Source of the DNA: Polaromonas sp.
Lineage (GTDB): Bacteria; Pseudomonadota; Gammaproteobacteria; Burkholderiales; Burkholderiaceae
Direction of reading: 5' to 3'
NCBI GenBank assembly: GCA_013823505.1
Contig: PNMH01000033.1
Coordinates: 1 to 40,677 of the forward strand
DNA length: 40,677 nt
Position numbers and translations under genes: made by a program. Positions 23,569 through 26,907 of the stretch are shown here, piece by piece (within the stretch, counting starts at the first letter, position 1; every line of letters starts with the position of its first letter). The notes under the pieces were generated by a model. The model did not search any database, had not been told where the DNA came from, and was given only the letters and a program-made list of their open reading frames with translations.

Positions 23569-24174
23569 ATGGCCCTGTTCGACAAACTGTTTGGCGAGCG
23601 CTACGCCGCCGCCCGACTGCGCAAACGCCGGCACCAGCGGGTCGGTGTCTCCACCACCGCTCAACGCGCCGCGGACCTGCTGCGCTCCACCACGGCACTC
23701 ATCCAGCTCAGCCCCGCCGAGGCGCTGACGGTGGTGGCCTACATGGAGTTGCGTCGCTGCCCCGAGGGGGAAACCATCATCCGCCAGGGCCACAGCGGCG
23801 GTGAGGACGGCTTCATGGCGCTGGTGATTGAAGGCGAGATCACGGTCGAAGCCGTCACGGTCAGCCGCACCGAGCCGCTCACGGTCAACGTGCTCGGCCC
23901 GGGCCACCTCATGGGCGAGATGTCGCTCATGGACGGTGAAGCCCGCTCGGCCACCTGCACCGCGAGCACCGAGGTGCGCTGCGCCGTGCTCACACGCACC
24001 GCCCTGCAGACCCTGATGGCCGAAGAACCAGCCACCGCCGCCAAGCTGCTCAGCGCCGTGGCCCAGCGCCTGAGCCAGCGGTTGCGCGAGAACGACACCA
24101 AGCTGCAGCTCTACGGTCAACTCGTGCTGTCGATGCAGCAGGAGATTGACCGCTTGATTCCCGAGCCGCCTTAG
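23569..24174 (+). CDS. Cyclic-nucleotide-binding-domain protein without DNA-binding domain
   Basis: 201 residues from the ATG at 23569. The CAP-type cyclic-nucleotide-binding beta-roll spans about 50-165 (ALTVVAYMELRRCPEGETIIRQGHSGGEDGFMALVIEGEITV, then LGPGHLMGEMSLMDGEARSATCTAST, where GEMSLMDGEARSA is the phosphate-binding cassette). The C-terminal part is a long helix with no helix-turn-helix, so it is not a Crp/Fnr transcription factor; a protein partner or allosteric sensor role is more likely. The N-terminal 45 residues are basic and helical. Its TAG stop overlaps the convergent terC stop (TTAG, 24171-24174). No Shine-Dalgarno is obvious. Confidence 0.85.
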   Translation: MALFDKLFGERYAAARLRKRRHQRVGVSTTAQRAADLLRSTTALIQLSPAEALTVVAYMELRRCPEGETIIRQGHSGGEDGFMALVIEGEITVEAVTVSRTEPLTVNVLGPGHLMGEMSLMDGEARSATCTASTEVRCAVLTRTALQTLMAEEPATAAKLLSAVAQRLSQRLRENDTKLQLYGQLVLSMQQEIDRLIPEPP

Positions 24175-25121
24175 GTGTTCGGTGCAGTCTTGCTGCTCCA
24201 GATCATGGTGATGGCCAGGATGGAGAGCACCACGCCGAGCGAAATGGCGACGGGAATCTTGAACACGTCGATCAACAGCATCTTGGTGCCGATGAAGACC
24301 AGGATCACGGCCAGACCGTAGTTCAGCAGGTGGAAGCGGCTGGCAGCGGCTTGCAGCAGGAAGAACATGGCGCGCAGGCCCAGGATGGCGAACACGTTGC
24401 TGGTCAGCACGATGAACGGGTCCTTGGTGATGGCGAAGATCGCGGGGATGGAATCCACCGCGAAGATCACGTCGGTCAGGCCCACCAGGCAGATCACCAT
24501 GAGCAGCGGCGTGGCGATGCGCTTGCCGTTCTCCACCGTCCAGAACTTCTCACCGTCGAACGACTTGCTCACCGGCAGGATCTTGCGCAGCAGCTTGAGC
24601 GCAGGGTTGTCGTCCAGGCTGGGTTCCTGGCCGGCAGCCCACCACATCTTCAGGCCGGTGAGCACCAGGAAGGCACCGAACAGATAGAGGATCCAGTGGA
24701 ACTGCGCCAGCAACCAGCCGCCCACCAGGATCATCACCGTGCGCAGCACGATGGCGCCCACGATACCGATCATCAGCACTCGCTTCTGGTAGGCCGCAGG
24801 CACGGCAAAGTAGGTGAAGATGAGCAGGAAGACAAAGATGTTGTCGACTGCCAGGCTCTTCTCGATCAGATAGCCGGTGAGAAACTCCAGCGCCTTCTCA
24901 TTGGCGATCTCGGACGAGCCGGTGGTGTCCTTCACGGCCCACCAGAACAGCGCATTGAACATGAAGCTCAAGGCCACCCAGACGAGCGACCAACGCAACG
25001 CCTCCTTCACGCCCACCACATGAGAGCCCTGCTTGCTGAGCACGACGAAATCGATGAAGAGGGCAGCGATGACGATCGCGACAAAGACGACCCACAGCCA
25101 CAACGGGGCAATGCTTTCCAT
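24171..25121 (-). CDS. TerC-family membrane protein, probable manganese exporter
   Basis: 316 residues from the ATG at 25121 (GAGG six bases upstream). About eight to nine membrane helices are visible, with the family's acidic helix motifs: FIDFVVLSKQG (helix 1), EKSLAVDNIFVFLLIF (about 90-105) and LTDVIFAVDSIPAIFAIT (about 203-222). The Asp residues in these helices are the proposed metal ligands. TerC/Alx/MeeF-type proteins export Mn2+ and help metallate secreted enzymes. The assignment is strengthened by a yybP-ykoY manganese riboswitch in the leader. The gene converges with the cyclic-nucleotide-binding gene; their stop codons share bases. Confidence 0.93.
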   Translation of the reverse strand: MESIAPLWLWVVFVAIVIAALFIDFVVLSKQGSHVVGVKEALRWSLVWVALSFMFNALFWWAVKDTTGSSEIANEKALEFLTGYLIEKSLAVDNIFVFLLIFTYFAVPAAYQKRVLMIGIVGAIVLRTVMILVGGWLLAQFHWILYLFGAFLVLTGLKMWWAAGQEPSLDDNPALKLLRKILPVSKSFDGEKFWTVENGKRIATPLLMVICLVGLTDVIFAVDSIPAIFAITKDPFIVLTSNVFAILGLRAMFFLLQAAASRFHLLNYGLAVILVFIGTKMLLIDVFKIPVAISLGVVLSILAITMIWSSKTAPNT

Positions 25122-25124
25122 GAG

Positions 25125-25154
25125 AAACCTCAGGTTTGGTGTTGAAGGAACACC
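25125..25154 (-). promoter_or_regulatory. Expression platform of the manganese riboswitch
   Basis: Two hairpins follow the aptamer: GGTGTT-CCTTC-AACACC (25154-25138), whose first bases overlap the 3' strand of P1, and AAACC-TGA-GGTTT (25137-25125), which contains the GAGG ribosome site of terC. Pairing of the second hides the Shine-Dalgarno. Competition between P1 and these hairpins would let manganese binding open translation. The mechanism is inferred from pairing by eye. Confidence 0.5.
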
Positions 25155-25286
25155 CCAAGGTCTTGCCATGGCCGCACGGTGTGCGGTTGGAGATTTCCGG
25201 CGACCGTCAGGCCGCGTATTGACGAAAATCCCACCGGCCGAAGCCCGGCTGCGCGCCGGGTGGCAGGTCGACTACTCCCCTTGAAG
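25153..25286 (-). ncRNA. yybP-ykoY manganese riboswitch in the terC leader
   Basis: The minus-strand leader has the conserved 5' element GGGGAGTAG (25280-25272) and the conserved 3' element GCAAGACCTT (about 25166-25157). P1 pairs CTTCAAGG (25286-25279) with CCTTGGGG (25160-25153), eight pairs including two G-U. Further stems are a CCCGGC/GCCGGG hairpin, a GATTTTC/GGAAATC stem enclosing the TCGTCAATACG element seen in mntP and alx leaders, and a CCGCAC-ACC-GTGCGG hairpin. This class binds Mn2+ and typically controls TerC-family and MntP exporters, exactly the gene that follows. Confidence 0.85.
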
Positions 25287-25295
25287 GGAAGCGCG

Positions 25296-25325
25296 ATTGT
25301 GGTGGCGAAACACAAGTTCCACCAA
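25296..25325 (-). promoter_or_regulatory. Candidate promoter for the riboswitch-terC transcript
   Basis: On the minus strand, TTGGTG (25325-25320) and CACAAT (25301-25296) are separated by 18 bases. A start about seven bases beyond the -10 would fall near 25289, just before the riboswitch P1 helix begins at 25286. The fit of position supports an otherwise weak -35. Confidence 0.4.
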
Positions 25326-25334
25326 CTGAACAAC

Positions 25335-25353
25335 CCTCAGGTTTTTCCTGAAG
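25335..25353 (-). terminator. Hairpin after metH (weak terminator)
   Basis: CTTCAGG, loop AAAAA, CCTGAGG (25353-25335 on the minus strand) forms a 7-bp stem with one G-U pair 12 bases after the metH stop. There is no strong U-tract after it, so termination is uncertain. It separates metH from the riboswitch-controlled terC transcript. Confidence 0.35.
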
Positions 25354-25365
25354 TTGCTGCGCCGA

Positions 25366-26412
25366 TCACGCGGCTTCCTTGTAGAAGACCTCGCGCCTGA
25401 GGCTGCGCGGGGCCAGCGGCTCCACGCTCTGGTGGATGGCCGCGATGTGCTCCGGTGTGGTGCCGCAGCAACCACCCACGATGTTGACCAGGCCTTCGGC
25501 CGCGAACTCGCGCAGCAGGCGGCTGGTGTCCTCGGGCGTTTCGTCAAAGCCGGTGTCGCTCATGGGGTTGGGCAGGCCGGCGTTGGGGTAGCAGCTGATG
25601 AAGGTGTCGCCCGCGACCTTGGCCAGCTCCTGGATGTAGGGGCGCATCAGCGCGGCACCCAGCGCGCAGTTGAGGCCCACGGCCAGCGGCTGCAGGTGGC
25701 GCACGCTGGCCCAGAAGGCGCTGACCGTCTGGCCGCTCAGGATGCGGCCGGAGGCGTCGGTCACGGTGCCGCTGATGATGACCGGCAGGCGCTCGCCGCT
25801 GTTCTCGAAGAACTCGTCGATGGCGAACAGCGCGGCTTTGGCGTTGAGCGTGTCGAAGATGGTCTCCACCAAGAGCACATCGGCACCGCCTTCGACCAGC
25901 GCCTCGATCTGCTCCAGGTAGGCCGCGCGCAGCTGCTCAAACGTCACATTGCGCGCACCGGCGTCGTTCACGTCGGGGCTGATGCTGGCGGTCTTGGGGG
26001 TGGGGCCGAGCGCGCCGGCCACAAAACGCGGTTTGTCGGGCGTGCTGAATTTGTCGCAGGCCGCGCGAGCGATGCGCGCCGAGGCCAGGTTCATCTCGCG
26101 CGCCAGATGCCCCATCTCGTAGTCGTCCTGCGCGATCGTGGTCGCTCCAAAGGTGTTGGTCTCGATCAGGTCGGCACCGGCGGCGAGATACCCTTCGTGG
26201 ATGTCCTGGATCACGTCGGGGCGGGTGAGGCTGAGCAGCTCGTTGTTGCCCTTCACATCCTTGTGGAAGTCCTTGAAGCGCTCGCCCCGGTACTGCGCCT
26301 CGCCCAGCTTGAACCGCTGGATCATGGTGCCCATCGCGCCGTCGAGGATGGCGATGCGGTGTTTCAGGATCTCGGGCAGCGCCTGGGCGCGGGTGTAGGC
26401 AGGGGAAGTCAT
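25366..26412 (-). CDS. metH: Homocysteine-binding half of split cobalamin-dependent methionine synthase
   Basis: 348 residues from the ATG at 26412. It corresponds to the N-terminal homocysteine S-methyltransferase barrel of MetH only: [13 protein letters not shown] near the start, the [12 protein letters not shown] motif, and the zinc ligands Cys249 (GLNC), Cys315 and Cys316 (GGCCGTTP). Full MetH has about 1,200 residues with folate, cobalamin and activation domains. Those are absent here, in keeping with the split metH of many Burkholderiales, where a second protein carries the rest. The second half is not in this window. It transfers methyl groups to homocysteine in the cytoplasm. No ribosome site precedes the start; a TACAAT hexamer at 26424-26419 suggests a leaderless or nearly leaderless message. 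Confidence 0.9.
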
Positions 26413-26418
26413 GCCCGG

Positions 26419-26484
26419 ATTGTAAGAAGTGACCCGACCCGGGGACCGCGCCTGGACGGGCGGCCTCAGGCTTTCCCCGACAAT
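26419..26484. promoter_or_regulatory. Divergent promoters of metH and the rhodanese gene, possibly leaderless
   Basis: The 79-base spacer holds a -10-like TACAAT on the minus strand (26424-26419), six bases before the metH ATG, and a -10-like GACAAT on the plus strand (26479-26484), seven bases before the rhodanese ATG. Both starts lack a Shine-Dalgarno. Transcripts starting about seven bases after each -10 would begin at or beside the AUG. The -35 elements are weak. Confidence 0.4.
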
Positions 26485-26491
26485 AGCCCCC

Positions 26492-26907
26492 ATGAAACAC
26501 CTCACGCCCCAGCAGGCCTGGGCCTGGCTGCAGGCCGAACGCGAGCAGCGCGAAGCCCGCGGCGAAGCACCACCGCTGTTTGTGGACGTGCGCATGGAAA
26601 TCGAGTCGCTCTACGTGGGCCGCCCACCTGGCGTGGAGAACATTCCCTGGTACGAATACCCCGACCTCACGCCCGACCCGGCGCGTTTTGCGCAGGCGGT
26701 GGAGCGCGAGGCGGGCGACAGACAACGCCCGGTGCTGCTGATCTGCCGCAGCGGCAAGCGCACGCTGGACGCCGGCAAGGCGCTGGAAGCCGCCGGCTTC
26801 AGCGAAGTGGCGCACGTGGTCCACGGCTTCGAGGGTGAGCTCAACGAAGACTTCAAACGCTCCAGCCTGAACGGCTGGCGCCACGATGGGTTGCCGTGGG
26901 AGCAGAT

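What the first reader, a model, noticed from the sequence alone, without database searches (positions are those of the whole stretch)
25125..25286. Manganese (yybP-ykoY) riboswitch with Shine-Dalgarno-masking hairpin upstream of a TerC-family gene
The terC leader has the conserved GGGGAGTAG and GCAAGACCTT elements, an eight-pair P1, the TCGTCAATACG element and three supporting stems. A downstream AAACC-TGA-GGTTT hairpin contains the terC ribosome site, and an adjacent hairpin overlaps the P1 3' strand. The pairing suggests translational control by Mn2+, and identifies this TerC protein as a manganese exporter rather than a tellurium gene. The class is established; this copy and its switch model come from reading the sequence.
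Basis: partly seen in the sequence, partly recalled or inferred. Interest (0 to 1): 0.75.

Follow-up and report, generated by a model that had tools for sequence, protein, structure and literature searches.

The report
Manganese riboswitch controlling terC/alx gene
An RNA sensor of a well-known kind sits just ahead of a probable manganese-exporter gene and most likely switches on that gene's translation when manganese is high; it is an ordinary member of its class, though the standard RNA-family model misses it.

Summary
Window 25288-25152 (minus strand) is a yybP-ykoY (Mn2+) riboswitch aptamer, 30 nt upstream of a TerC/Alx gene (protein 57% identical to E. coli Alx). A covariance model built from 53 relatives, with the window and three close relatives held out, finds it at 115 bits (E 1.7e-29) and also finds the E. 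coli alx and mntP leaders. The helices covary in 57 leaders. Rfam RF00080 gives no match, but it also misses the alx leader and scores mntP below threshold, so that test does not refute.

The proposed SD-masking hairpin is probably not the switch. The 3' strand shared by P1 and the metal loop (25162-25154) can pair with the ribosome site (25134-25126). This complementarity is common across the clade and couples directly to the aptamer. No intrinsic terminator was found between aptamer and gene, so translational ON control by Mn2+ fits best; binding and switching are inferred.

Verdict: a new member of a known kind. Side results: only 4 of 74 sites found by my model in 200 related genomes coincide with RF00080 sites, and 19 of 80 homologous terC leaders have no detectable riboswitch.

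The parts
25152..25288 (-). Mn2+ (yybP-ykoY) riboswitch aptamer, four helices
   Evidence: Held-out covariance model R1: 115.3 bits, E 1.7e-29; covariation in 57 leaders
25273..25280 (-). L1 5' strand GGGGAGUA (metal loop); its first two G are part of P1
   Evidence: Invariant in the 57 aligned leaders, which were chosen by this motif; also in E. coli alx and mntP
25159..25166 (-). L1 3' strand GCAAGACC; shared with P1 and with the anti-SD helix
   Evidence: AGACC invariant in the 57 leaders, which were chosen by it
25279..25286 (-). P1 5' strand (switch helix), pairs with 25160-25153, 8 pairs
   Evidence: Of the inner five pairs two show two-sided changes, one varies on one side, two never vary (helix 1)
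25215..25225 (-). L3 element UCGUCAAUACG; A25220 is an invariant adenosine, candidate Mn2+ ligand (assignment inferred by position)
25233..25268 (-). P2 with inner stem 25260-25255/25249-25244
   Evidence: Covariation, helices 3 and 4 (66% and 72% of cells paired, the weakest helices)
25190..25232 (-). P3 (P3.1 25232-25226/25196-25190; P3.2 25215-25210/25205-25200)
   Evidence: Covariation, helices 5 and 6
25172..25186 (-). P4 CCGCAC-ACC-GUGCGG
   Evidence: Covariation, helix 7
25154..25162 (-). anti-SD strand GACCUUGGG (OFF state), overlaps P1/L1 3' strand
25126..25134 (-). SD side of the OFF helix CCUGAGGUU; SD GAGG at 25131-25128
25138..25154 (-). spacer hairpin GGUGUU-CCUUC-AACACC between the two arms of the OFF helix
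   Evidence: Mean pair probability 0.90 in the free ensemble
   Evidence: P 0.00 in the free ensemble
25274..25292 (-). possible 5' anti-aptamer hairpin GCUUCCCU-UCA-AGGGGAGU that would hide the P1/L1 5' strand in the OFF state
   Evidence: Predicted in the MFE; weak comparative support
25296..25301 (-). -10-like CACAAT, putative promoter of the leader
   Evidence: A NAHAAT motif occurs there in 37 of 57 leaders; the sigma-70 scan found no promoter-like site
24171..25121 (-). terC/alx gene (316 aa), Mn2+ exporter by homology
   Evidence: Pfam TerC, TIGR03718, 57% identity to E. coli Alx

Best explanation
A translational ON riboswitch of the yybP-ykoY (Mn2+) class. Without Mn2+ the leader folds so that the 3' strand of L1/P1 (GACCUUGGG) pairs with the SD region (CCUGAGGUU) and blocks ribosome binding; the 5' strand of L1/P1 may be hidden in its own 5' hairpin. 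When Mn2+ bridges L1 and L3 of the docked four-way junction, P1 is stabilised, its 3' strand is no longer available, and the SD of terC/alx is freed, raising the amount of a TerC/Alx Mn2+ exporter. Shown here by computation: structure, covariation, kinship to the E. coli alx and mntP leaders, gene identity, enriched complementarity between the aptamer strand and the SD, no intrinsic terminator found. Inferred: Mn2+ binding, direction of switching, export by this protein.
For: Held-out model hit 115 bits; the same model finds the alx leader (34.9 bits) and mntP leader (25.7 bits). Covariation: 82.5% of cells paired against 35-49% when slid, 35 of 45 pairs with two-sided changes. TerC 57% identical to Alx. 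Anti-SD pairing predicted in 55 of 57; duplex energy -8 kcal/mol or better in 44 of 57 against 19 of 227 other genes; own SD zone better than its shuffles (p at most 0.05) in 41 of 57. P 0.87 in the window's free ensemble. No intrinsic terminator between aptamer and gene. Of 30 examined model-hit sites, 29 precede TerC/Alx (21), YjbE-type (6) or MneA-type (2) genes (type references confirmed). Passages read: mntP and alx leaders respond to Mn2+ and are of this class (PMC9603457); RBS occlusion at mntP without Mn (PMC11647493); P1.1 as switch helix (PMC6754395, X. oryzae, transcriptional).
Against: Rfam RF00080 gives no match even at E up to 10. The anti-SD helix rests on conserved complementarity, not on covariation: at the variable base before AGACC, a C faces T in 9 leaders and G in only 2. 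The window's own SD pairing (-7.2 kcal/mol for a 12-nt strand; three G-U pairs in the 9-pair helix) is weaker than the clade mean of -10.9, and 13 of 57 leaders do not reach -8. Forcing P1 costs about 19 kcal/mol in the secondary-structure model (-76.4 against -95.2, which included coding sequence down to 25080 and an assumed 5' end), so an ON state needs tertiary contacts, Mn2+ or co-transcriptional folding that the model lacks. No expression or binding data.
Confidence: 0.85

Rival explanations
1. One reading: the local AAACC-UGA-GGUUU hairpin masks the SD, and the GGUGUU/AACACC hairpin competes with P1.
For: Five pairs present in the window; the close relatives L003, L007 and L013 keep 4-5 pairs.
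Against: Probability 0.00 in the free ensemble. A local hairpin holding the SD's GG with at least 4 pairs occurs in 22 of 57 leaders. It shares no strand with the aptamer, so Mn2+ would have no direct way to open it.
Confidence: 0.1
2. Control at transcription: Mn2+ prevents termination (intrinsic or Rho) in the leader.
For: B. pertussis BP3410, same class, was interpreted as stopping transcription within the riboswitch (PMC8546581, passages read); Rho acts at the E. coli mntP leader (PMC11647493, passages read).
Against: No terminator-like site between aptamer and start codon on this strand; complementarity to the SD is enriched. Rho as an additional layer is not excluded.
Confidence: 0.1
3. 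A variant aptamer with another ligand, or mainly a pH sensor.
For: The alx leader also answers to alkaline pH (PMC9603457, passages read).
Against: L1 and L3 core residues match the Mn2+-responsive leaders, and the downstream genes examined are metal-homeostasis genes of this class.
Confidence: 0.04
4. A decayed, non-functional copy.
For: Copies with mutated core positions exist in the clade (L030, L037).
Against: The window keeps the core positions and scores like its close intact relatives.
Confidence: 0.02

Closest known systems
E. coli alx leader (yybP-ykoY class)
   Same: Same L1/L3 elements and helices, same gene family (57% identical protein), found by the same model (34.9 bits)
   Different: In the window the complementary strand is the SD itself, with a spacer hairpin between; in alx the complementary GAGGTCT lies about 65 nt upstream of the start codon
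E. coli mntP leader
   Same: Same class (25.7 bits with R1; 41.6 bits with RF00080); reported RBS occlusion without Mn (PMC11647493, passages)
   Different: Controls MntP, not TerC; diverged helices
MneA-type (GDT1/UPF0016) Mn2+ riboswitch of Burkholderiales
   Same: Same core motifs, same order of bacteria (L093-L102)
   Different: Matched by RF00080 (100-112 bits in the three loci scanned), precedes a GDT1-family gene (one example tested), different sequence downstream of the aptamer

Membership tests
yybP-ykoY (Mn2+) riboswitch, RF00080 | L1 formed by GGGGAGUA and (GC)AAGACC | tested here: met
   25280-25273 and 25166-25159; GGGGAGTA and AGACCT were selection criteria for the 57 leaders, so their invariance there is by construction
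yybP-ykoY (Mn2+) riboswitch, RF00080 | L3 with the invariant metal-binding adenosine | tested here: met
   UCGUCAAUACG 25225-25215; C and A of CGUCA invariant in 57 of 57. That A25220 is the Mn2+ ligand is inferred by position, not from a solved structure
yybP-ykoY (Mn2+) riboswitch, RF00080 | Four-way junction of P1-P4 | tested here: met
   Two-sided changes in each of the seven helices counted
yybP-ykoY (Mn2+) riboswitch, RF00080 | Profile kinship to experimentally established members | tested here: met
   R1 finds alx (E 9.5e-9) and mntP (E 2.9e-6) leaders
yybP-ykoY (Mn2+) riboswitch, RF00080 | Rfam RF00080 score above gathering (operational test) | tested here: inconclusive
   No match; but the same scan gives no match on the alx leader and 41.6 bits (below 45) on mntP, while it rings on MneA-type leaders
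yybP-ykoY (Mn2+) riboswitch, RF00080 | Leader of a Mn2+-homeostasis membrane protein gene | tested here: met
   TerC/Alx
yybP-ykoY (Mn2+) riboswitch, RF00080 | Mn2+ binding and Mn2+-dependent expression | not testable with these tools
   Needs probing and reporter assays
TerC/Alx family (TIGR03718) | Score above the curated cut-off | tested here: met
   398.5 bits against 246.4
TerC/Alx family (TIGR03718) | Mn2+ export activity | not testable with these tools
   Inferred from E. coli Alx; PMC13274385 (passages read) calls the role of TerC proteins in Mn homeostasis controversial but cites Alx as mediating Mn efflux under alkaline conditions

The most novel reading that the evidence does not exclude
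The TerC/Alx/YjbE-type Mn2+ riboswitches of Burkholderiales form a large, structurally coherent branch that the current Rfam model hardly sees. In this branch the switch is two-sided: a 5' hairpin hides the 5' aptamer strand while the 3' aptamer strand blocks the SD. In Limnohabitans/Rhodoferax lineages the aptamer has been lost and an unrelated terC-specific promoter-proximal element stands in its place.
Probability: 0.35. Interest if true: 0.45.

Novelty: new member of a known kind. Interest (0 to 1): 0.3.

Why it matters
It places a TerC/Alx gene of a Comamonadaceae-like bacterium under predicted Mn2+ control, so the protein should be read as a manganese rather than a tellurium gene (by homology). 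The practical point is that annotation relying on RF00080 would miss many TerC/Alx-type Mn2+ riboswitches in this group, and misses the experimentally studied E. coli alx leader. The 57-leader set gives a specific pairing to test for how the signal reaches the ribosome site.

Tried and rejected
Taking the missing Rfam hit as refutation was rejected after the alx and mntP controls. Finding the window's genome: none held; no near match among plasmids. A regulon-wide operator for the riboswitch-less leaders was rejected: of 11 pattern matches (up to 3 mismatches) in 10 genomes, 10 begin 147-161 nt before terC by position. The 5' anti-aptamer hairpin has weak comparative support: mean -8.9 against -7.3 kcal/mol shuffled, p at most 0.05 in 20 of 57. 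Two first counts of local hairpins (33 of 57, 33 of 57) were dropped because they also count the spacer hairpin; one search counts those that hold the SD's GG. The terC tree gave E. coli Alx a very long branch (7.59) despite 57% identity, so its root is not used. Family-wide searches scored only 15 or 12 candidates per genome, so their counts are lower bounds. Searches of the held library for this class with terC and betaproteobacteria, with Comamonadaceae, and for alx with Shine-Dalgarno gave no paper; this does not show absence from print.

Full report
Observation. The aptamer spans 25288-25152; terC starts at 25121, with 30 nt between. The stretch 25350-25115 folds better than shuffles (z -3.95).

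Rfam test and why it does not decide. cmscan gave no RF00080 match at gathering for the window and none at E up to 10 for 25000-25450. The same scan gave no RF00080 match on the E. coli MG1655 alx leader and 41.6 bits, below the 45-bit threshold, on the mntP leader, although both are described as Mn2+-responsive members of the class (PMC9603457, passages read). It did ring at 112, 103 and 100.6 bits on three MneA-type leaders. On terC loci that carry the motif it matched 0 of 15 at gathering (16 relatives were given, L055 lacks the motif), 0 of 10 at E up to 10 (some loci are in both calls) and 0 of 2 further ones at E up to 10 (L088, L091). So RF00080 in this copy is insensitive to the TerC/Alx type.

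Own model. The best 80 terC relatives were kept out of 390 confirmed, mostly Comamonadaceae. Of the 80, 56 carry both L1 strands; of the other 24, two have mutated cores (L030, L037), three are cut by a contig end (L052, L060, L064) and 19 lack the element (sorted by eye from the printed leaders). The 56 plus the window were aligned (A1). A model R1 was built from 53 of these 57, leaving out the window, L003, L007 and L013. L002, also close to the window in the protein tree, stayed in. R1 finds the window at 115.3 bits (E 1.7e-29), the three other held-out leaders at 113-121 bits, the alx leader at 34.9 bits, and L030 and L037 at 73 and 33 bits; in the 19 element-less loci there is no hit at the leader, only two weak ones elsewhere (E 3.5 and 7.8). 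With filters off it also finds the mntP leader at 25.7 bits.

Covariation. On A1, a plain MAFFT alignment, the hand-written structure pairs 82.5% of cells against 35-49% when slid; 35 of 45 pairs show two-sided changes (shuffled mean 29.9, 3 of 500 as high); covariation score 0.353 against 0.163 in shuffles (0 of 500 as high). P2 is the least well paired (66%). The leaders are related, so shuffles overstate significance; the slid controls keep relatedness, but the structure was derived from these sequences, which favours it. One P1.2 pair (columns 17/171) is mismatched (A-C) in 17 of 57, not in the window. RNAalifold alone found 20 pairs, 12 of them with two-sided changes.

Gene. The protein matches Pfam TerC and TIGR03718 'TerC/Alx family metal homeostasis membrane protein' (398.5 bits, cut-off 246.4), and is 57% identical to E. 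coli Alx over 307 aligned positions. [quoted passage not shown] Export by this protein is inferred.

How it switches. The 3' strand of P1/L1 is also complementary to the SD. Folding the platform alone, at least four expected paired bases between that strand and the SD zone are predicted in 55 of 57 leaders (L012 and L077 fall short). Duplex energy of the canonical strand with the 22 nt before the start codon is -8 kcal/mol or better in 44 of 57 riboswitch leaders, 4 of 19 riboswitch-less terC leaders and 19 of 227 other genes in the same loci; GGT[CT]T occurs in 39 of 57, 5 of 19 and 8 of 227. Against each leader's own shuffled SD zone, p is at most 0.05 in 41 of 57. Other genes' starts were simple longest ATG ORFs, so that background is noisy. 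Covariation does not add much: at the variable base before AGACC, C faces T in 9 leaders and G in 2. No intrinsic terminator lies between aptamer and start codon on this strand; the one minus-strand terminator-like site is inside the coding sequence. Stabilisation of P1.1 by Mn2+ is described for the X. oryzae aptamer, there for antitermination (PMC6754395, passages read), and RBS occlusion without Mn is described for mntP, with Rho as an extra layer (PMC11647493, passages read). Caveat: the secondary-structure model puts the P1 state about 19 kcal/mol above the OFF state; tertiary contacts, Mn2+ and folding order are not in that model.

Distribution. In 200 genomes of the same family, R1 found 74 sites in 67 genomes and RF00080 found 124 sites in 113 genomes; only 4 sites coincide. 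Three of the 4 precede MneA-type genes by the sequences read (L102, L110, L122); the fourth (G143) was not looked at. The searches scored at most 15 and 12 candidates per genome, so both counts are lower bounds. Of 30 R1 sites whose flanks were examined (the 10 best and 20 chosen by hand, not a random sample), 21 precede TerC/Alx, 6 a YjbE-type TerC protein, 2 an MneA-type protein and 1 none of these. The YjbE reference scores TIGR03717 216.9 bits (cut-off 134.8) and the MneA-type reference is Pfam GDT1; the name MneA is taken from PMC13274385 and recall.

Verdict. A real, apparently intact Mn2+ riboswitch of a known class; ordinary in kind. The corrections are the anti-SD pairing and the demonstration that the Rfam result is not informative here.

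Noticed in passing
L043-L046, L048, L054, L055, L057-L059, L066, L067, L069, L072-L074, L076, L079, L081: 19 of 80 homologous terC leaders have no riboswitch (clades of 7 and 11 plus L055 in the tree). Most share instead an element like AMAYTCCNTTTTTTNCGAASYAAA upstream of terC (alignment; looser in L054, L072, L079). In 10 such genomes it was found 11 times, 10 of them beginning 147-161 nt before terC. R1 found nothing in 12 such genomes; RF00080 found one site each in 3 of those 12.
   Followed up: partly
L030 1225-1375; L037 2822-2965: Aptamers with mutated L1/L3 core positions in Comamonadaceae genomes (73 and 33 bits with R1; sequences): probably decaying copies.
   Followed up: no
L113 1529-1669/1737-1893; L114 1516-1679/1759-1926; L116 1460-1624/1729-1893; L119 1259-1372/1492-1608: Two Mn2+ riboswitches back to back on opposite strands, one for TerC/Alx and one for a YjbE-type TerC protein, 68 to 120 nt apart at their 5' sides; R1 hits both in all four loci.
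   Followed up: partly
L106 1505-1644 (-): A strong R1 site (77.3 bits) with no TerC, YjbE or MneA match downstream; by eye a short terC-like start, then stops and unrelated sequence.
   Followed up: partly
RF00080 (Rfam 15 copy): The model's consensus as printed has a short P2-like stem, a P3-like stem and one long-range stem near the 3' end, no P1; it fits the MneA-type leader, misses alx and under-scores mntP.
   Followed up: partly
L005, L006 leaders: Ideonella leaders carry a second AAGACCT copy just before the start codon and no clear AGG SD, so their platform may work differently.
   Followed up: no
25366-26595 (-): The upstream gene is only the homocysteine-methyltransferase part of MetH (409 aa), so metH looks split; the other part was not looked for.
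   Followed up: no
L051 5538-5614: SAH riboswitch (60.5 bits) downstream of terC in Hylemonella gracilis; no Rfam match at gathering in the window.
   Followed up: no
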